IMG/VR virus record: IMGVR_UViG_3300042549_000288
Location: 1 to 25,119 of that record
Origin: a virus
Length of the DNA stretch: 25,119 nt
Reading direction: 5' to 3' (one strand)
The notes beneath the pieces were generated by a model. It ran no database searches. It worked only from the letters and a program-made list of their open reading frames with translations, and was not told where the DNA came from. The stretch's first letter is position 1. Each line of letters begins with the position of its first letter. A program made the position numbers and the translations under genes. Of this stretch, positions 3,114-19,275 are shown piece after piece.

Positions 3114-5381
3114 ATGGACTATACCGGCATAAATAAGGCAGCAAAAGTCGCCGATATCGGTGGAAATCCACCGCCGGACGACATCAAGAAAGACACGCAA
3201 GACGTGCTTTCAACCATGCGAAAGCGCCTGCAAATGGCGATTTCGGCGCTGTCTGAGAGCCGGGAAGACGAGCTAGACGACCTGCGCTTCTACGCAGGCT
3301 CGCCAGACAACCACTGGCAATGGCCAGCCGACGTCTTGGCCACACGCGGTGCGGTACAAGGGCAGACGATCAACGCCCGCCCGACGCTCACCATCAACAA
3401 GTTGCCCCAGCATGTACGGCAGGTCACCAATGACCAAAGACAAAACCGTCCGAGCGGCAAAGTTATACCTGCTGACGACAACGCCGACCCAGAAGTCGCC
3501 GAAATCTACAACGGCATGGTCAGGCACATCGAGTACATCTCGGACGCCGACGTCGCCTACGACACCGCCTGCGAGAACCAGGTCAGCTACGGCGAAGGCT
3601 ACATCCGAATCCTGACCGAATACTGCGACGACGACACGTTCGACCAAGACATCAAGATCGCCCGCATCCGTAACAGCTTTTCGGTCTACATGGACCCGAC
3701 AATCCAAGACCCATGCGGCGCGGACGCCAAGTGGTGCTTTGTCACCGAAGACTTGCAGCGCGCGGACTACGAGCGCATGTTCCCTGATGCAAGCCCGATC
3801 TCGACCTTGCAGGCGCAAGGCGTGGGCGACCAGTCGATCTCGGTCTGGATCAACCAAGATACGGTCAGAATCGCTGAGTATTACTACATCGAGTACGACC
3901 GCGCAACGCTGCACCTGTACCCCGGCAATGTGACGGCTTTCGAAGGTTCGCCCGAGGCCAAGCAGATGAAGCAGATGGGCATCAAGCCTATCCGCAGCCG
4001 TGAGGTCAACGCCAAGCGGGTCAAGTGGTGCAAGACCAACGGCTACGAGATGCTTGAGTCGAACGACTGGGCAGGCCGCTGGATTCCGATCGTGCGCGTC
4101 ATCGGTAACGAGTTCGAGGTTGACGGTAAGCTGTACGTCTCAGGTCTGGTGCGTAACGCCAAGGACGCTCAGCGCATGTACAACTACTGGACGAGCCAAG
4201 AGGCCGAGATGTTGGCCTTGGCGCCCAAGGCGCCGTTCATCGGTTACGGTGGCCAGTTCGAAGGTTATGAGATGCAGTGGAAGACGGCCAACACGCAGAA
4301 CTGGCCGTATCTGGAGGTCAACCCCGACGTAACAGACGGCTCTGGCGCCGTGTTGCCGCTGCCACAACGTGCGGCACCGCCACTGCCGCAGACCGGGCTG
4401 ATTCAGGCCAAGATGGGTGCGTCAGACGACATCAAGTCGACCACTGGCCAGTACGACACTAGTCTTGGAGCGACATCTAATGAGCGTTCGGGTAAGGCGA
4501 TTATGGCGCGCGAGCGTCAGTCTGACACTGGCACTTATCATTACGTGGACAATCTGGCACGCGCTGTTCGGCATGTAACGCGCCAGCTGGTTGACCTGAT
4601 CCCCAAGATTTACGACACCCAGCGGGTTGCCCGCATTATTGGGGTGGACGGCGACACCGACATGGTCAAGCTAGACCCCATGCAGCAGGAAGCGGTGCGG
4701 GAGATCCGCGACCAGAACGACATCGTCATCGACAAAATTTACAACCCCGGCGTTGGCAAGTACGACGTCGTGGTGACCACCGGCCCGTCCTACCTGACCA
4801 AGCGTCAAGAGGCACTAGATGCGATGGGCATGATCCTGCAATCCAACCCGCAACTCTGGCAAGTCGCTGGCGACCTGTTCATCAAGAACATGGATTGGCC
4901 TGGCGCCCAAGAGATGGCGAAACGGTTCGAGAAGATTATCGATCCGAAGATCATGGCCGACAGCGACGAGTCGCCCGAAATGCAGCAGGCCAAACAGCAG
5001 ATGGAGGCGATGGCCCAAGAGCTGGATCAGCTGCATCAGATGCTCCAAGGCGTCAATCAGTCGGTCGAAGTCCAAGATATGCAGCGCAAGAATTTCGAGG
5101 CCGAGATCAAGGCGTACCAAGCCGAGACGCAACGCCTTACCGCCGTCTCAGGCGCCATGACGCCCGACCAAGTGCAAGACGTCGTCATGCAGACCCTGCG
5201 CGACGTCATGTCGACAGGCGACTTGGCCATGAGCGAGGGTGGGCTAGAGTTGCCGGGCGAGATGCCTGAGATGGGCGAGGACATGGGCATGATGCCCCCA
5301 GAAATGGGCGTGGTGCCGCCAAGCGGAGCTGAAATGCCGCCTGAATTGATGAATATGCCGCCCGAGGAGCCACTGGCATGA
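3114..5381 (+). CDS. Portal protein, P22 gp1-like
   Basis: The dodecameric ring at one vertex of the head through which DNA is packaged and ejected, and to which tail-hub proteins bind. The 755-residue length is close to P22 gp1 (725). Family-typical stretches include LDDLRFYAGSPDNHW (about 54-68), LTINKLPQHVRQVTNDQRQN (about 92-111), ENQVSYGEGYIRI (about 154-166) and NERSGKAIMARE (about 459-470). A long helical, Gln-rich segment near residues 620-690 fits the C-terminal barrel. The tail after about 700 is unusually rich in Met, Pro and Glu. It follows its neighbour directly (TAAATG) and overlaps the next gene by four bases (ATGA). Confidence 0.95.
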   Translation: MDYTGINKAAKVADIGGNPPPDDIKKDTQDVLSTMRKRLQMAISALSESREDELDDLRFYAGSPDNHWQWPADVLATRGAVQGQTINARPTLTINKLPQHVRQVTNDQRQNRPSGKVIPADDNADPEVAEIYNGMVRHIEYISDADVAYDTACENQVSYGEGYIRILTEYCDDDTFDQDIKIARIRNSFSVYMDPTIQDPCGADAKWCFVTEDLQRADYERMFPDASPISTLQAQGVGDQSISVWINQDTVRIAEYYYIEYDRATLHLYPGNVTAFEGSPEAKQMKQMGIKPIRSREVNAKRVKWCKTNGYEMLESNDWAGRWIPIVRVIGNEFEVDGKLYVSGLVRNAKDAQRMYNYWTSQEAEMLALAPKAPFIGYGGQFEGYEMQWKTANTQNWPYLEVNPDVTDGSGAVLPLPQRAAPPLPQTGLIQAKMGASDDIKSTTGQYDTSLGATSNERSGKAIMARERQSDTGTYHYVDNLARAVRHVTRQLVDLIPKIYDTQRVARIIGVDGDTDMVKLDPMQQEAVREIRDQNDIVIDKIYNPGVGKYDVVVTTGPSYLTKRQEALDAMGMILQSNPQLWQVAGDLFIKNMDWPGAQEMAKRFEKIIDPKIMADSDESPEMQQAKQQMEAMAQELDQLHQMLQGVNQSVEVQDMQRKNFEAEIKAYQAETQRLTAVSGAMTPDQVQDVVMQTLRDVMSTGDLAMSEGGLELPGEMPEMGEDMGMMPPEMGVVPPSGAEMPPELMNMPPEEPLA

Positions 5382-7643: not shown

Positions 7644-8846
7644 ATGGCAAACTCGATTCTTACCATCGACATGATTACCCGTAAGGCTCTCGAAATCCTT
7701 GAGAACAACCTGGTAATCACTCGTAACGTCAACCGTCAGTACGACGATTCTTTCGCCGTTGAAGGCGCAAAAATTGGCTCAACTCTGCGTATTCGTTTAC
7801 CAGACCGCGCTCTGGTGACCGACGGCGCCGCTCTGCAAGTGCAGGACGACAACGAACAGTTCACCACCCTGACCGTGGCTTCGCAGAAGCACATCGGCGT
7901 GAACTTCACCTCCGCTGAACTCACCATGCAGTTGGATGACTTCGCAGAGCGTGTGTTGAAGCCTCGTATTTCGCAGCTGGCCTCCAGCATCGATGCTGAC
8001 GTTGCTAACGCATACAAAAACATCGGTAACTCGGTTGGTACACCTGGCACCACCCCATCGACTTCGCTCGTTCTGCTGCAAGCTCAGCAGAAGCTGAACG
8101 AAAACGCTGCTGTGATGTCGCCACGCTACGCAACGGTTAACCCAGCGGCTAACGCTGGTCTGGTTGAAGGCATGAAAGGTCTGTTCAACCCAACCGACAC
8201 CATCAGCCGCCAGTTCAAGAACGGCATGATGGGCACCGGCGTTCTGGGCTACGACGAAGTCAACATGTCTCAGTCGATCAAACAGCACACCAACGGCGAT
8301 TGGGGCACCACCATCACTGTGACTTCGACTGTCACAACTGAAGGTCAGTCCACACTGCCAATCAGCTTTACTGGCTCGTCTAAGACATGGAATGTCGGCG
8401 ACGTGTTCACTATCGCTAACGTGTTCGCTGTCAACCCACAGACCCGTGAGTCGACTGGTTCGCTGCAACAGTTCGTTGTGACTGCCGCTGCTACTGGCTC
8501 GTCAACTGCTACGCTGTCGATCTCCCCAGCACTGTATTCGGCAAGCCAAGCACTGGCTACCGTCTCGTCGCTGCCTGCTTCGGGCGCTGCGGTGACTATG
8601 CTGGGTAACGCAACTGGTCAGTACGCTCAGAACCTGGTCTACCACAAAGACGCGATCACGTTTGCGACCGCTGACTTGCTGATGCCACAAGGCGTGGACA
8701 TGGCTTCTCGCCAAGTCCATAACGGTATCTCGATGCGTATTGTTCGACAGTACGACATCAACAACGACCGTCTGCCTTGCCGTATCGACGTTCTGTACGG
8801 CTACAGCACGATCCGTCCGCAAATGGCCTGCCGCGTTTGGGGCTAA
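7644..8846 (+). CDS. Major capsid protein, P22 coat-like
   Basis: The main shell protein, 400 residues, of the P22 coat family (HK97 fold). The N-terminal arm ANSILTIDMITRKALEILEN (2-21), NRQYDDSFAVEGAKIGSTLRI (30-50) and the FTTLTVASQKHIGVNFTSAELTM segment are typical of the family. A beta-rich segment at about 222-322 (TTITVTSTVTTEGQ onward) sits where P22 gp5 carries its inserted immunoglobulin-like I-domain. The gene follows the scaffold with a Shine-Dalgarno-like AGGATAT before its ATG. Its codons are strongly biased to a few C-ending and T-ending forms, as expected for the most abundant phage protein. Confidence 0.95.
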   Translation: MANSILTIDMITRKALEILENNLVITRNVNRQYDDSFAVEGAKIGSTLRIRLPDRALVTDGAALQVQDDNEQFTTLTVASQKHIGVNFTSAELTMQLDDFAERVLKPRISQLASSIDADVANAYKNIGNSVGTPGTTPSTSLVLLQAQQKLNENAAVMSPRYATVNPAANAGLVEGMKGLFNPTDTISRQFKNGMMGTGVLGYDEVNMSQSIKQHTNGDWGTTITVTSTVTTEGQSTLPISFTGSSKTWNVGDVFTIANVFAVNPQTRESTGSLQQFVVTAAATGSSTATLSISPALYSASQALATVSSLPASGAAVTMLGNATGQYAQNLVYHKDAITFATADLLMPQGVDMASRQVHNGISMRIVRQYDINNDRLPCRIDVLYGYSTIRPQMACRVWG

Positions 8847-9952: not shown

Positions 9953-10663
9953 ATGGCAACCGCCTTCGACCAGATCAAAGCGTCGCTCCGGCTCATAGGC
10001 CAGCTGGCTGAAGGTGAAGAGCCATCCCCGCAGGCAGCGCAAGACGCATTGACCGCCATGAATCAGATGATTGATTCGTGGAATACTGAGCGCCTAGCCG
10101 TGTTTTGCACGGAAGACCAAGTGTTTAACTGGCCGCCTGGCGAGATTACTCGCACTCTAGGGCCGACAGGTAACTTCGTGGGCAACCGCCCCGTTCTGAT
10201 TGACGACGCAACGTACTTTCGTGACGCTAGCACCAACGTGTCCTACGGCATCAAGCTGATTAACCAGCAGCAGTACAACGGCATTGCGGTCAAGACGGTC
10301 ACCAGCACCTACCCGCAGGTCATGTTTGTGAACAATACGTTCCCAGACATTACCATGACGATCTACCCCCAACCCACAAGGGTTCTGGAGTGGCACTTTG
10401 TGTCGGTGCAGGAGCTGACTAAGCCTGCAACCTTGAACACCGTGCTGTCGTTCCCGCCGGGTTATTTGCGTGCGTTCAAGTACAACTTGGCGATGGAAAT
10501 TGCCAACGAGTTTGGTGTCGAGCCTATGCCGCAAGTGCAGCGTATTGCCATGACGTCTAAGCGTAACCTCAAGCGCATCAACAATCCTGATGACGTGATG
10601 TCCATGCCGTACTCGCTGGTCGCCACCCGTCAGCGCTTTAACATCTACGCTGGCAATTATTGA
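9953..10663 (+). CDS. Head completion / tail accessory protein, P22 gp4-like
   Basis: A 236-residue protein of the gp4-type packaged-DNA stabilisation family, which binds the portal ring after packaging and starts the tail. The helical N-terminal half (DQIKASLRLIGQLAEGEEPS, then AQDALTAMNQMIDSWNTERLAVF, about 6-51) is the hallmark. It is longer than P22 gp4 (166), as are relatives in many environmental podoviruses. The order coat, small genes, gp4, gp10 matches P22. A strong AAAGGAG ribosome site precedes the ATG, and its stop overlaps the next small ORF (TGATG). Confidence 0.85.
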   Translation: MATAFDQIKASLRLIGQLAEGEEPSPQAAQDALTAMNQMIDSWNTERLAVFCTEDQVFNWPPGEITRTLGPTGNFVGNRPVLIDDATYFRDASTNVSYGIKLINQQQYNGIAVKTVTSTYPQVMFVNNTFPDITMTIYPQPTRVLEWHFVSVQELTKPATLNTVLSFPPGYLRAFKYNLAMEIANEFGVEPMPQVQRIAMTSKRNLKRINNPDDVMSMPYSLVATRQRFNIYAGNY

Positions 10664-10824
10664 TGGAATTTACTTTTCGTTCTCGTTGGGTTGAAGTTAA
10701 CGTGCGCACTAAGCGCATGTATTCGCCCGCGCACGACAAGTTTTTCCCCCCTCAGTTAGCTGCTCGGCTAGGTGATTGGCTGTGGTCTACGGGCAAAGGC
10801 TTCCGTAAGTTAGGGGCAACATGA
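10663..10824 (+). CDS. 53-aa ORF between gp4-like and gp10-like genes
   Basis: A short gene linked to both neighbours: its ATG overlaps the gp4-like stop (TGATG) and its TGA overlaps the next start (ATGA). It encodes 53 residues with seven aromatic residues besides Trp, three Trp and many Arg/Lys (MEFTFRSRWVEVNVRTKRMY to start, then PPQLAARLGDWLWSTGKGFR). The exact fit between two overlapping junctions, with no stop in the 161-base gap, makes it a likely gene. I do not recognise a family. It could be a small head-tail joining factor, but that is a guess from position. Confidence 0.65.
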   Translation: MEFTFRSRWVEVNVRTKRMYSPAHDKFFPPQLAARLGDWLWSTGKGFRKLGAT

Positions 10825-12254
10825 AAACGCCTATCCTTGGCCAATCATATGTGGCTCGCAGCGTTAACGCTGCGGATAGCCGCATGGTGAATTTGTACCC
10901 TGAAGCCACACCGGCGCCAGAAGGTATGGAGCCTGCGTTTTTGAACCGGGCGCCAGGCTTGCGTAAGCTAGCTACCGTCGGTACCGGCCCCATCCGTGGG
11001 CTGTGGCAGTACGGCAATTACGGCTACGCTGTGTCTGGCAGCAAGCTCTACCGCATCTCAAGCAACTGGACGTCGGTACCGATCGGAAACGTCAGCGGTA
11101 CTGGCCCCGTGTCGATGGTGGATAACGGCACACAGCTCTTTATTGCAGCCAATCCGGATGGTTACATCTACGACGCGTCGACTGAAGAGTACGCCGAAAT
11201 CACCGATGTAGATTTCCCCGGTGCGGTAACAGTCGGCTATTTGGACGGCTATTTTGTCTTCCAAGAGCCGAATTCGCAGCGATTCTGGACGTCTGAACTG
11301 CTTGATGGCACCCAGCTCGACCCACTGTCGTTTGCCAGTGCTGAAGGTATGCCAGACAACTTGGTGTCGCTGTTTGTCGACCACCGCGAGGTATGGCTGT
11401 TTGGAACCCAGTCGGTTGAAGTCTGGTACAACGCGGGCGACACACCGTTCCCGTTGGCTCGTATCCAAGGTGCGGTCAACGAGCTGGGCTGCGCAGCGAC
11501 CTTCTCAGTAGCCAAAATGGACAACTCGCTGTTCTGGCTAGGGTCAGACGCCCGTGGCCAAGGCGTGGTGTTTCGTGCCAACGGCTACACTGGCCAGCGC
11601 ATCTCTACCCACGCGGTTGAATTTGCCATCCAGAGCTACGGCACCATCTCAGACGCAATCGCTTTTACTTACCAGCAAGACGGCCATGCTTTCTACGTGT
11701 TGACCTTCCCGACTGCCCAGAAGACTTGGGTGTTCGATGTGGCCACGCAAGCCTGGCATGAGCGTGCTGGATTTGCCAACGGGCAGTTTATCCGTCACCG
11801 TGCGAACTGCCAGATGTTCTTTAACAACGAAGTGGTTGTCGGCGACTTCCAGAACGGCAAGATTTACGCTTACGATCTCGACGTGTTTGCTGACGATACG
11901 CTGCCACAAAAGTGGCTGCGGTCGTGGCGAGCGCTGCCTACCGGCCAGAACAATTTAAAGCGTACCGCCCAGCATGCCTTGCAACTTGAGTGCGAGACAG
12001 GTGTGGGCTTGGTTCTTGGCCAAGGCAACGACCCTCAGGTCATGCTGCGCTTCTCAGACGACGGTGGCCACACATGGTCGAACGAGAAGTGGGCGGGTAT
12101 GGGCAAGATGGGCAATTACGGATTTAGAGCGTTCTGGCGTCGGTTGGGCATGACTGACAAGCTGCGTGACCGCGTGTACGAGGTATCAGGCACCGACCCC
12201 GTCAAGATCGCCATTATGGGTGCCGAACTCGCTTTGTCCGGCACCAATGCCTAA
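10821..12254 (+). CDS. Tail hub protein, P22 gp10-like packaged DNA stabilisation protein
   Basis: A 477-residue homologue of P22 gp10 (472 residues), which forms a hexameric ring under the portal/gp4 assembly and carries the tailspikes and needle. The N-terminal PILGQSYVARSVNAADSRMV with NLYPEATP (4-31) and FLNRAPGLRKLATVGTGPIR (40-59) are signature-like for this family, as is the repeated beta-propeller-like pattern with LWQYGNYGYAVSG, WLFGTQSVEVWYNAGD and FWLGSDARGQGVVFRANGYT. It overlaps both neighbours by a few bases. No truncation is seen. Confidence 0.92.
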   Translation: MKTPILGQSYVARSVNAADSRMVNLYPEATPAPEGMEPAFLNRAPGLRKLATVGTGPIRGLWQYGNYGYAVSGSKLYRISSNWTSVPIGNVSGTGPVSMVDNGTQLFIAANPDGYIYDASTEEYAEITDVDFPGAVTVGYLDGYFVFQEPNSQRFWTSELLDGTQLDPLSFASAEGMPDNLVSLFVDHREVWLFGTQSVEVWYNAGDTPFPLARIQGAVNELGCAATFSVAKMDNSLFWLGSDARGQGVVFRANGYTGQRISTHAVEFAIQSYGTISDAIAFTYQQDGHAFYVLTFPTAQKTWVFDVATQAWHERAGFANGQFIRHRANCQMFFNNEVVVGDFQNGKIYAYDLDVFADDTLPQKWLRSWRALPTGQNNLKRTAQHALQLECETGVGLVLGQGNDPQVMLRFSDDGGHTWSNEKWAGMGKMGNYGFRAFWRRLGMTDKLRDRVYEVSGTDPVKIAIMGAELALSGTNA

Positions 12255-13710
12255 CGCCGATAACGAACCGCAGATACCCAAGAACCAGTCGTCTATTACT
12301 GACGACCGGACGGGTCTTGTCTCGCGTGACTGGTATCGGTTCTTCCTAAACCTATTAAATAAGGCCAATACCGGCGGCGGGTCAGGCACGGTCACATCGG
12401 TCAACGTATCAGGCGGCACGACGGGTTTAACGACCTCTGGCGGCCCTGTTACGACGTCCGGCACGATTACCTTGGCTGGCACCCTAGACGTCGATAACGG
12501 CGGCACAGGCGCCACTACAGCAGCGAATGCCCGCACTAACTTGAGCGTGCCCAGCACAACAGGTTCTGGCGCGTCTGGTACGTGGGCTATCGACATCACC
12601 GGCAATGCGGCCAATGTCACAGGCACAGTAGCGATTGCCAACGGGGGTACAGGCCAGACGACTGCCGCTGCGGCCATTACGGCTTTAACAGGCACGCAGA
12701 CGTCAGGCTATTACCTGCGCTCAGATGGCACAAACGCGGCTTTGAGCGCTATTCAGATTGCGGACGTACCAACGCTTAATCAAAACACGACAGGCCAAGC
12801 AGGCAGCGTAGCCAATGCCTTGACCGCAGGCACGGGTATCTCGTACAGCGCCGGCACGACTTACAACGGCTCAACAGCTATTACGATTAACAATTCGGCG
12901 CCAGACCAGACGGTGGTATTGACCGGCGGCACAGGCATCAGCACGTCGGGCACGTACCCTAGCTTTACGATCACCAATACCCTGCCTGACCAAGTAGTGG
13001 CGCTAACGGGCGCGGGCACAACTAGCATCTCGGGCACGTACCCTAATTTCACCATTACATCGAACGACCAGTACGTGGGTACCGTCACCAGCGTGTCCGG
13101 CACCGGTACGGTTAACGGCATTAGCTTGTCCGGCACGGTCACATCTAGCGGCAGCCTGACACTGGGCGGCACACTGTCAAACGTCAGCTTGACCACGCAG
13201 GTGACCGGCACGCTGCCGATCGCTAATGGCGGCACAGGCCAGACGACTGCCAGCGCAGCCTTTAACGCCCTGTCGCCCATCACCAGCACGGGTGACTTGA
13301 TCCTTGGCAACGGCGTCAACAGCGCTACTCGCCTGCCGATTGGCGCGAATACTTACGTGCTGACATCGAACGGCACAACGGCAACCTGGGCGCTGCCAAC
13401 CGGTTCGGGCGCAACGATTACGAACGACACGACAACGGCCACGAACGTCTATCCGACGTTCGCGGCTGCCACGTCCGGTTCGCTGTCAACCATCTATACT
13501 AGCAATGCAAAATTACTGTACAAACCCAGTACCGGTGAATTAACATCCACAGCAGTAGCGGCGTCTAACGGCATATTTGTCAATAGTTTAACTATTGGCA
13601 CCAGCTACACGATTCCCGCAGGCTATTCGGGCATGTCTGCCGGTACGGTGACGGTGTCCGGCGGCGTGACGGTGACTGTGCCTAGTGGCTCACGATGGGT
13701 GGTGGTGTGA
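12247..13710 (+). CDS. Repeat-rich tail fibre at the P22 needle position
   Basis: A 487-residue Gly/Thr/Ser-rich fibre. The ATG at 12247 is chosen because the protein then starts MPNADNEPQIPKNQSSITDD and includes the RTGLVSRDWYRFFLNLLN motif, a common fibre N terminus; an upstream in-frame ATG at 12166 lies inside the gp10-like gene. NGGTG-TT repeats occur near residues 84, 132 and 327, GTVTSV repeats near 45 and 277, and two SGTYP-FTIT repeats near 235 and 260. The C terminus has YTIPAGYSG and ends VTVPSGSRWVVV, a trimeric fibre-tip motif shared with the gene at 18385. P22 has its needle gene gp26 here, so this fibre may plug the tail. Confidence 0.8.
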   Translation: MPNADNEPQIPKNQSSITDDRTGLVSRDWYRFFLNLLNKANTGGGSGTVTSVNVSGGTTGLTTSGGPVTTSGTITLAGTLDVDNGGTGATTAANARTNLSVPSTTGSGASGTWAIDITGNAANVTGTVAIANGGTGQTTAAAAITALTGTQTSGYYLRSDGTNAALSAIQIADVPTLNQNTTGQAGSVANALTAGTGISYSAGTTYNGSTAITINNSAPDQTVVLTGGTGISTSGTYPSFTITNTLPDQVVALTGAGTTSISGTYPNFTITSNDQYVGTVTSVSGTGTVNGISLSGTVTSSGSLTLGGTLSNVSLTTQVTGTLPIANGGTGQTTASAAFNALSPITSTGDLILGNGVNSATRLPIGANTYVLTSNGTTATWALPTGSGATITNDTTTATNVYPTFAAATSGSLSTIYTSNAKLLYKPSTGELTSTAVAASNGIFVNSLTIGTSYTIPAGYSGMSAGTVTVSGGVTVTVPSGSRWVVV

Positions 13711-14051
13711 TCAATCATTATTTTAGTTCTGGCGTGTACGCCAAAGAAACTCGCATTCCCGCAGGGCAAGTGCTAGTGCAACACGCGCATAAATACGACC
13801 ACATGTCTATTTTGGCCGAAGGTCAAGTTGAAATCTTGGTAGACGGCAAAAAAGAAGTTTTGTACGCGCCAGCTTTACTAACCATAGAAGCCAACAAGCA
13901 TCACGGCGTAAAAGCATTAACTGACGTAGTTTGGTATTGCATTCACGCCACAAGCTGTATAGACGAAGATGAAATTGATGAAGTTTTAATTGCGCCCGGC
14001 AACATGGCTGCCGCGCAACATATCGCAAGCGAATTGCAAAAGGAGTACTGA
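13707..14051 (+). CDS. Cupin-fold protein
   Basis: A 114-residue single-domain cupin. The first cupin motif is visible as PAGQVLVQHAHKYDHMSILA (about 18-37) with His26, His28 and His32 as likely metal ligands, and GQVEILVDG follows. The second motif region has His65/His66 in EANKHHGVKAL. Metal binding is predicted; any enzyme activity is unknown. Related cupins occur in podovirus genomes between hub and ejection genes. A GTG start overlapping the fibre stop (GTGA) gives a protein starting with INHYFSSGVYAKE; the in-frame ATG at 13695 is an alternative. It may be a virion or assembly protein at the P22 gp14 position. Confidence 0.75.
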   Translation: MINHYFSSGVYAKETRIPAGQVLVQHAHKYDHMSILAEGQVEILVDGKKEVLYAPALLTIEANKHHGVKALTDVVWYCIHATSCIDEDEIDEVLIAPGNMAAAQHIASELQKEY

Positions 14052-14052
14052 T

Positions 14053-14757
14053 ATGCCTTGGATTATTGGTGGGGCGATGCTTGGTAGCGCGCTGATTGGC
14101 GGCGCTAGTTCTGGTGCGGCTTCTAGGGCGCAAGAGCGCGCACAACGCGAAGCTAGTGCGGCTGAAGAGCGCATGTTTAACCGTCAGGTTGAGTTGCAAG
14201 AGCCTTTCCGTCAGGCTGGCGTCAACGCGCTGCCCGAACTAGTTGAGGCATCTCGCTACACGCCGTTTGGCATGGAGCAGTTTCAGCAAGACCCCGGCTA
14301 TGGGTTTCGTTTGAAAGAGGGCTTACGCGCGTTGGAAAGTTCAGCAGCTGCGCGAGGCGGCCTGCTGTCAGGCAACGCTATGCGCGGCATAACGCGTTTT
14401 GGCCAAGAATTAGGATCGCAAGAATTTGGCAACGCGTTTAACCGCTATCAAGCAGAGCGTGCTGCTCGTTTGAATCCACTGCAAAGTTTGGCCGGCATGG
14501 GGCAAAGTACGGCAGCAACTTTAGGTGGGCAAGCCGGGCAGTACGGTCAAAGCATGGCGCAAGGCGCGGCGGCTATGGGCAACATCCGCGCATCTGGCTA
14601 CATGAATCAAGCGAACGCATTAACGAACGCGTTGGGTCAGGGGGTGAATTACTACCAGAACCAGCAGATGATGGATCGGTATTTTCCCCGGCCAACGGCT
14701 GGTGGAACGTCGCCGCTAGGCATGCCGGGTAATCCGTTTGCATTCGACGTTACTTAA
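14053..14757 (+). CDS. DNA ejection protein, P22 gp7-like position
   Basis: A 234-residue protein likely carried in the head and released into the cell envelope to help DNA entry. The ATG at 14053 has a strong AAAGGAG seven bases upstream, and it encodes WIIGGAMLGSALIGGASSGA (3-22), a glycine-zipper-like membrane segment. It is followed by a helical Arg/Glu region, then QDPGYGFRLKEGLRALESSA (about 79-98), a GGLLSG motif and NAFNRYQAERAARLNPLQSLA (about 127-147). The QDPGY-FRL-EGL-ALE-SAAARGGLLSG signature is typical of podovirus DNA-transfer proteins. It is the first of three ejection-type genes and a longer in-frame ATG (13990) lies within the cupin gene. Confidence 0.85.
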   Translation: MPWIIGGAMLGSALIGGASSGAASRAQERAQREASAAEERMFNRQVELQEPFRQAGVNALPELVEASRYTPFGMEQFQQDPGYGFRLKEGLRALESSAAARGGLLSGNAMRGITRFGQELGSQEFGNAFNRYQAERAARLNPLQSLAGMGQSTAATLGGQAGQYGQSMAQGAAAMGNIRASGYMNQANALTNALGQGVNYYQNQQMMDRYFPRPTAGGTSPLGMPGNPFAFDVT

Positions 14758-18384: not shown

Positions 18385-19275
18385 ATGGCATCACTAACTC
18401 CAACACCCAAGCAGCAGTTCTTCGATGCCAACGGCAACCCGCTGGTAGCTGGCAAGGTCTACACCTACGCCGGGGGCACGACGACCCCGATTGCGACGTA
18501 CACCGACCAGGCAGGCGGCACTGAGAACACCAACCCGATCATCCTTGACTCGCGGGGCATGGCCAACATCTGGTTGCAGCCAACCGTTGCGTACAAGTTC
18601 GTCATCACCGACAGCAACGATGTCACCCAATACACCACGGACAACATCCTGGTGCCTGTGGACAACCTGTCGTTCGGCTCACCGCCTCCAATCGGTGACG
18701 TGTCGCCTAACACTGGCGCGTTCACCACCTTGTCAGCCACACAAGATGTGACCTTCTCCGGCTTTGGCTACGTGCAGATGCCTGTGGGTGCCACGACTGA
18801 CCGGCCTAGCGCGCCAGCTGAAGGCATGTTCCGCTACAACAGCACGCTGGATCTGTTTGAGGGTTTTAGCAATAACCAGTGGGGTCAGGTGGGCGGTGCT
18901 GCGGGTGCAACCGGCGGCGGTAACGACGAAGTCTTTATTGAGAACGACCAGACGGTCACGATCAGTTATACAATTCCGGCTACCAAGAACGCCATGACCA
19001 CCGGCCCGATCACGCTGGGTGCTGGCTTTGTGGGCGATGGCAGTATTGCAGCCACAACGCTAACCATTGATACCGTCACATCAGGCGCCTTGGGTGTGGG
19101 TTCGGTGATTGCCGGTTCAGGCATTACAGCAGGCACAGTCATTACAGCGTTGCTTACGGGCACCGGTGGTGAAGGCACTTACGAGGTGTCGCCCTCGCAG
19201 TCGGCGTCGTTAACCGCGATCACTGCGGCGGTGATTGTCACCGTTTCATCCGGCAGTCGCTGGGTAGTTTTGTAA
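18385..19275 (+). CDS. Tail fibre with P22-tailspike-like head-binding domain
   Basis: A 296-residue fibre/adaptor. Residues about 8-95 ([20 protein letters not shown], then a repeated-turn beta region [20 protein letters not shown]) resemble the head-binding domain of P22 gp9 tailspike, which docks onto the gp4/gp10 hub. The middle (about 130-175) has [20 protein letters not shown], a common fibre module. The C terminus has the [17 protein letters not shown] and [12 protein letters not shown] tip motif, but split by about 60 inserted residues ([20 protein letters not shown] to QSASLTAIT). No depolymerase domain is present, so it is probably a docking or short fibre. Confidence 0.82.

What the first reader, a model, noticed from the sequence alone, without database searches (positions are those of the whole stretch)
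13707..14051. Cupin metal-binding protein within the tail/ejection gene block
A single-domain cupin with a His cluster (HxH, later His, HH) sits between a fibre gene and the ejection genes, at the P22 gp14 position. Cupins are mostly enzymes or sugar/metal-binding proteins. Here it may stabilise the tail tip, bind host polysaccharide, or modify a substrate. The genuine role of such phage cupins is not settled as far as I know.
Basis: partly seen in the sequence, partly recalled or inferred. Interest (0 to 1): 0.5.

Follow-up and report, generated by a model that had tools for sequence, protein, structure and literature searches.

The report
Metal-site cupin in P22 gp14 slot
A short-tailed phage carries a small barrel-shaped (cupin) protein with an intact four-histidine metal site in a gene slot where relatives carry other enzyme-like proteins instead, which suggests an accessory enzyme acting while the virus is built rather than a host-gripping tail part.

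Summary
Observation confirmed. ORF 13707-14051 (114 aa, GTG start) is a single-domain cupin: Pfam Cupin_2 above cut-off, AF2 pLDDT 94.8, VIA Z 11.4 to cupin enzymes. It lies between a fibre gene and a gp7-type DNA-ejection gene in a P22-like structural block. H26, H28, H32 and H66 are kept in 80 of 80 close relatives. In the wider family (PHROG 12032, labelled 'short tail fiber protein') H26 is usually lost and H66 is Arg: of 185 distinct cores 90 are HHHH and 87 have Arg66.

The slot is more interesting than the gene. In 80 contigs fetched by the ejection protein it holds a cupin in 42 (4 with SET), a GNAT-type protein in 23 (4 with AspH upstream, 4 with a sulfotransferase-like domain, 6 P22 gp14-like), neither in 13, undecided 2. 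P22 gp14 itself models as a GNAT. Cupin and GNAT did not co-occur in the records searched; BPP-1 has both.

Best reading: an accessory, probably metal-dependent protein made with the ejection proteins, acting at assembly, not an adhesin. Substrate, activity and virion presence are untested.

The parts
13707..14051 (+). 4-His cupin, 114 aa, GTG start (the ORF list begins it at ATG 13695)
13782..13790 (+). codons of H26 and H28 (HxH of motif 1)
   Evidence: sequence; alignments
13800..13802 (+). codon of H32, at the usual Glu/Gln position of cupin motif 1
   Evidence: sequence; alignments
13902..13904 (+). codon of H66 (motif 2 His); Arg in the degenerate part of the family
   Evidence: sequence; alignments
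12166..13710 (+). fibre-like gene at the gp26 position (true start probably inside the overlap with Hc3); no Pfam or PHROG hit; body highly variable among relatives
14053..14757 (+). gp7-type DNA-ejection protein, 234 aa; phrog_598 2.5e-38; AAGGAG at 14040-14045 inside the cupin gene
10821..12254 (+). P22 gp10-like tail stabilisation / head closure Hc3
9953..10663 (+). gp4-like head-tail adaptor Ad3 (phrog_637 1.4e-8)
7644..8846 (+). P22-type coat protein
3114..5381 (+). P22-type portal

Best explanation
A small metallo-cupin, made in the same translational cluster as the tail fibre and the first DNA-ejection protein, that occupies the P22 gp14 slot. SHOWN: cupin fold (model), conserved 4-His site of the TM1459 type, synteny, purifying selection, exchange of this slot with GNAT-type proteins (some of them P22 gp14-like), cupin+SET, sulfotransferase-like+GNAT and AspH+GNAT arrangements. 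INFERRED: that it binds a metal; that it acts during assembly, most likely as an enzyme (or enzyme-derived morphogenesis factor) on a neighbouring virion protein (ejection protein or fibre) or on a small molecule needed for it; that it is accessory rather than obligatory, since close relatives of the same ejection gene have no such gene in the slot.
For: Fold. Metal site: 80 of 80 close relatives HHHH; 90 of 185 distinct cores HHHH; the ungapped phmmer match to TM1459 chain 8awo (query 18-73 to chain 44-99) puts H26/H28/H32/H66 on 52/54/58/92, and PDB titles of TM1459 H52A and H58E/Q mutants in copper form mark 52 and 58. Synteny: ejection gene next to the cupin in 75 of 78 window-clade loci, 63 of 71 and 69 of 74 in two further scans, edge loci excluded (sets overlap in contigs). 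Slot exchange: 80 contigs fetched by the ejection protein: 42 cupin, 23 GNAT-type, 3 L189-type, 8 small protein, 2 fibre directly, 2 undecided. GNAT: PF00583 in 14 of 35 non-cupin records. P22 gp14 as GNAT: homology of slot proteins to gp14, hhalign E 1.8e-4 but probability 48%, AF2 plus Foldseek 7.5e-7 and Z 14.5 to SpeG. SET, AspH. Coupling: 4-nt overlap upstream, 1-nt gap downstream. dN/dS 0.03-0.11. In T7-like phiPsa17 the gp13-slot protein is absent from the virion protein table (11 proteins) while gp14-16 are present (PMC4517105, passages).
Against: Half of the wider family keeps the slot without the four His (87 of 185 cores have Arg66), so metal is not needed for whatever all members share. 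Exceptions to the slot: Xanthomonas phage Elanor (4-His, replication region), Alteromonas phage H4/4 (before the portal), BPP-1 (beside a GNAT, one gene before the head-tail adaptor). In loci fetched by the ejection protein the cupin is more divergent than the ejection protein (median identical fraction 0.26 against 0.51). No substrate, metal or activity was measured. GNAT, AspH-type and sulfotransferase folds also act on sugars, lipids or metabolites, so a protein target is not implied. 13 of 80 slots hold neither a cupin nor a GNAT-type protein.
Confidence: 0.42

Rival explanations
1. It is a virion tail component (short tail fibre or adhesin), as PHROG 12032/24280 and several phage records say; the cupin binds a surface glycan or stabilises the fibre.
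For: Family labels; adjacency to a fibre gene; the X14 record notes an unknown-function structural gene; PMC8703784 (passage) cites a short tail fibre with an RmlC-like cupin domain in phage phiAP1 and says no experimental validation was performed.
Against: The VvAW1 paper itself lists this gene as 'hypothetical phage protein' PHA00672 (PMC3558961, passage), so the name in the record is later. The gene is conserved while the fibre body is not (biased set), and the gene is exchanged with GNAT-type proteins or absent next to similar ejection proteins.
Confidence: 0.2
2. It is a non-catalytic morphogenesis factor: the slot protein, whatever its fold, helps load or fold the ejection proteins, as P22 gp14 (PHROG 'head morphogenesis') may do.
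For: P22 gp14 is called head morphogenesis / head assembly protein (PMC4837284 passage); strict adjacency to the ejection gene; degenerate members have lost H26 and replaced H66 by Arg.
Against: Different folds serve similar ejection proteins (about 77% identical with GNAT in L188 and cupin in L191; about 86% with cupin in L191 and no such gene in L206); the 4-His site is invariant in the window clade.
Confidence: 0.2
3. It is a late-expressed metabolic or host-modifying enzyme (sugar or small molecule; KdgF, DddK or cellulose-oxidase-like) that happens to be inserted at a hot spot.
For: Best structural neighbours include metal cupin enzymes DddK, KdgF and the cellulose oxidative enzyme; 4-His members also occur outside structural blocks (Elanor).
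Against: Adjacency to the ejection gene holds in most relatives, in P22-like phages and in VPMS1, and a cupin precedes the internal virion genes of a phiKMV-like phage; a random hot spot should gather unrelated cargo, but here mostly cupin and GNAT-type folds.
Confidence: 0.18

Closest known systems
PHROG 12032 / 24280 / 34170 (PHA00672) phage cupins labelled 'short tail fiber protein' / 'tail fiber adhesin'
   Same: Clear sequence homology (2e-20, 2e-17, 2.6e-13), same slot before the ejection gene
   Different: The window protein lacks the roughly 45-residue N-terminal extension and keeps all four His; most labelled members have lost H26 and carry Arg66
P22 gp14 (DUF2824, phrog_651 'head morphogenesis')
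   Same: Same gene position between the gp26-position gene and the gp7-type ejection gene
   Different: Different fold: gp14 models as GNAT; not homologous to the cupin
TM1459-type 4-His manganese cupin; KdgF; DddK; cellulose oxidative enzyme 9bwf
   Same: Cupin fold (Z about 10-11.4); HxHxxxH...H spacing aligned to TM1459 52/54/58/92
   Different: About 13-23% identity; no evidence of a shared substrate; 9bwf has Gln where H32 is
T7 gp13 (PF11090)
   Same: Slot before the first internal virion protein; a cupin takes this place in Sphaerotilus phage SnaP-R1
   Different: No detectable homology; only weak phmmer hits to spermidine acetyltransferases (E 0.39)

Membership tests
Cupin superfamily (Cupin_2) | Profile match above the curated cut-off | tested here: met
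   30.9 bits against 27.2, E 2.2e-7
Cupin superfamily (Cupin_2) | Double-stranded beta-helix barrel | tested here: met
   AF2 pLDDT 94.8, nine strands; Foldseek and VIA top matches are cupins
Cupin superfamily (Cupin_2) | Metal-binding motif residues HxH...(E/Q/H)...H | tested here: met
   H26, H28, H32, H66 in 80 of 80 close relatives and invariant in A9
Cupin superfamily (Cupin_2) | Bound metal or catalytic activity | not testable with these tools
   needs purified protein
PHROG 12032 'short tail fiber protein' | Sequence homology to the family | tested here: met
   2e-20 over residues 2-98
PHROG 12032 'short tail fiber protein' | Being a tail fibre or adhesin in the virion | not testable with these tools
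   no virion evidence found in the paper searches; the label rests on annotation
P22 gp14 / DUF2824 | Gene position between the gp26-position gene and the gp7-type ejection gene | tested here: met
P22 gp14 / DUF2824 | Sequence or fold relationship | tested here: not met
   no DUF2824 hit in the window protein; gp14 model is GNAT, window model is cupin
2-oxoglutarate oxygenases of the cupin fold (JmjC, AspH) | HxD/E...H iron triad (recalled motif) | tested here: not met
   window motif is HxHxxxH...H; no Asp_Arg_Hydrox or JmjC Pfam hit

The most novel reading that the evidence does not exclude
Short-tailed phages keep a 'modification slot' directly before their first DNA-ejection gene. It is loaded interchangeably with enzyme folds (4-His cupin, GNAT including P22 gp14 itself, SET lysine-methyltransferase-like domain fused to a cupin, AspH-type hydroxylase, sulfotransferase-like domain) that chemically modify ejection or fibre proteins before packaging. 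P22 gp14 would then be an acyltransferase-derived virion-protein modifier.
Probability: 0.25. Interest if true: 0.8.

Novelty: new variant of a known kind. Interest (0 to 1): 0.5.

Why it matters
The gene belongs to a widespread phage family named 'short tail fiber' without, as far as my searches went, experiments. That its slot alternates with GNATs, that P22 gp14 models as a GNAT, and that cupins in the slot are fused to SET domains turns an unexplained gene of a model phage into a testable question: does the slot protein modify a virion protein? Mass spectrometry of ejection proteins from wild type and slot mutants could answer it.

Tried and rejected
Adhesin reading: tested by divergence; in cupin-fetched loci the cupin is conserved and the fibre is not, but in ejection-fetched loci the cupin itself diverges, so this test is not decisive. 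NCBIfam gave only a sub-threshold encapsulin match (0.047), dismissed as chance. The top phmmer row 7udk, a designed repeat protein, dismissed: no stretch passed on its own. A MazG PHROG match (6.4e-4, residues 61-106) was not followed up. Paper searches for a phage cupin structure or virion evidence gave no experiment; a search for the cellulose-oxidase cupin paper returned none, so its chemistry is not used. P22 gp14 function was sought in PMC10883804, PMC5850374, PMC4755594 and PMC8954989 (passages only): the gp14 in the passages shown was T7's. PMC4925675 (passages) gave only gene tables. T7 gp13 as GNAT is only hinted. The tree was built with the metal columns included and has only 97 columns; it shows one split between 4-His and other cupins but is not rooted. 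hhalign of the gp14 family with slot GNATs has a good E-value but 48% probability. Nothing was concluded from families that VIA did not list.

Full report
1. What is there. ORF 13707-14051 encodes 114 aa. Its start codon is homologous to ATG, GTG or TTG starts in relatives. It overlaps the upstream fibre ORF by 4 nt and the ejection ORF begins 1 nt after its stop. Neighbours are P22-type portal and coat, an Ad3-like adaptor, P22_stabilise/Hc3, a variable fibre-like gene, the cupin, and a phrog_598 DNA-ejection protein. The window is a 25,119-base virus record with one cupin and no PF00583 GNAT.

2. Fold and metal site. Cupin_2 is met above the cut-off. AF2 on 51 aligned relatives gives pLDDT 94.8. 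Foldseek best is 3fjs, 4.2e-7; VIA best are DddK (Z 11.4, 1.8 A over 93 residues) and HP0902, then KdgF (10.6), the cellulose oxidative enzyme 9bwf (10.1) and TM1459 (about 10). A shared fold shows no function. The profile of the wider family matches 9bwf best among PDB sequences (1.9e-6), as does the 4-His profile (1e-6), but 9bwf has Gln at the H32 position. Ungapped phmmer alignment to TM1459 puts the four His on 52, 54, 58 and 92; that these are TM1459's metal ligands is partly from PDB titles and partly recalled.

3. Two kinds of one family. In phages the relatives are 54 of 50,697 records, all under 60% identity. 110 stretches matched in viral contigs, 109 were relatives and 80 were kept. 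Across 185 distinct cores 90 are HHHH; 87 have Arg at 66 and only one of those keeps both H26 and H28 (VPMS1, pattern HHQR); the other 8 are mixed or unaligned. A tree of 54 rows splits 4-His from other cupins with 100/99 support and one change (metal columns included, 97 columns, unrooted). The degenerate kind has an N-terminal extension that the window clade lacks. 18 held cupin ORFs carry a C-terminal SET-like domain (NHS/NHA and EITxxY-type motifs), and in L240 it is a separate ORF; Pfam SET is above its cut-off in ct1fd225 (6.4e-6) and below it in P26218 (0.015).

4. Where it sits. The ejection gene follows directly in 75 of 78, 63 of 71 and 69 of 74 non-edge cupins of three scans (the first two share contigs). 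Named phages agree by annotation for P22-like BA3, VvAW1 and P26218 and for VPMS1; in SnaP-R1 the cupin follows tail tubular B and precedes a small gene and internal virion proteins. Exceptions: Elanor in a replication region, H4/4 upstream of the portal, BPP-1 beside a GNAT.

5. What else sits there. The gene directly upstream is a cupin in 42 (32 degenerate, 4 degenerate with SET of which 3 fused and L240 as a separate ORF, 6 four-His), a GNAT-type protein in 23 (9 plain, 4 with an AspH gene upstream, 4 with a sulfotransferase-like N-terminal domain, 6 P22 gp14-like), an unassigned L189-type protein in 3, a small beta-rich protein in 8, a fibre directly in 2, undecided 2. Labels rest on Pfam/PHROG for representatives and PF00583 in 14 of 35 records. 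The sulfotransferase-like call is weak (Pfam 0.0019, below cut-off). The AspH label rests on L413 (Asp_Arg_Hydrox 5.5e-8) and phmmer hits 1.3e-28 to 5e-27 in L215, L217, L219, L238.

6. P22 gp14. Slot proteins of the L212/L250 type match phrog_651 (P22 gp14; 3.5e-3 and 2.3e-5) and phrog_1249 (acetyltransferase; about 6e-4) and align with gp14 at 20-24% identity. AF2 of gp14 (pLDDT 73, pTM 0.70, 12 sequences) has a GNAT-like order of elements; nearly all of the 50 listed Foldseek rows are N-acetyltransferases (best 7.5e-7) and VIA gives Z 14.5 to SpeG. The model is of middling confidence. I recall, untested, that Pfam places DUF2824 in the acetyltransferase clan, so this may be known to curators.

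7. Exclusivity. PF00583 was found in 0 of 22 records (21 with a cupin, L249 with neither); the cupin profile in 0 of 35 non-cupin-slot records and in 21 of 21 cupin records as control. Many records are fragments. BPP-1 breaks the rule.

8. Bacteria. In 84,980 species genomes the 4-His profile found one relative out of 28 pattern matches, in Variovorax sp. KBW07, inside a P22-like block, with an AspH gene next to it. The 4-His clade is thus a phage family in these collections.

9. Mechanism. Selection (dN/dS 0.03-0.11), an invariant 4-His site and an exchangeable slot point to an accessory metalloprotein made with the ejection proteins. The T7-like phage phiPsa17 shows no gp13-slot protein among 11 virion proteins (PMC4517105, table passage), which weakly favours an assembly-stage role; gp13 is not a cupin. 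Catalysis and target are inference.

10. Verdict. Real, correctly described, a new variant of a known phage cupin family. The slot exchange and the GNAT-fold gp14 are the interesting part.

Noticed in passing
L092:8911-9366 (P22 gp14), L333:2501-2956: P22 gp14 (DUF2824) models as a GNAT fold; best VIA matches are spermidine N-acetyltransferases.
   Followed up: yes
L284-L287, L295, L297, L301-L305, L310, L321, L179, L204, L202, L088, L098: Degenerate cupins fused to a SET methyltransferase-like domain.
   Followed up: partly
L215:2954-3496, L217:2954-3496, L219:2921-3463, L238:2954-3496, L413:4336-4875: AspH-like (Asp_Arg_Hydrox) gene directly upstream of a slot GNAT, and directly downstream of the 4-His cupin in a Variovorax prophage-like block.
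   Followed up: partly
L211:1767-2834 and L222, L229, L252: About 355-aa slot protein: sulfotransferase-like N-terminus with a GNAT-like C-terminus.
   Followed up: partly
L095:23173-24092 (BPP-1 bbp23, bbp24): A degenerate cupin and a GNAT lie side by side, overlapping by 4 nt, near the head-tail adaptor gene.
   Followed up: no
window 12166-13710 and 18385-19275: Both fibre-like proteins end in a near-identical SGSRWVV tail, though their bodies differ.
   Followed up: no
L085:5950-6900 (Xanthomonas phage Elanor): 4-His cupin in a phage replication region, next to a nucleotide pyrophosphohydrolase gene.
   Followed up: no
L197, L206, L209, L213, L220, L237: 110-113 aa beta-rich small protein between fibre and slot/ejection gene in many contigs; its role is unknown.
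   Followed up: no
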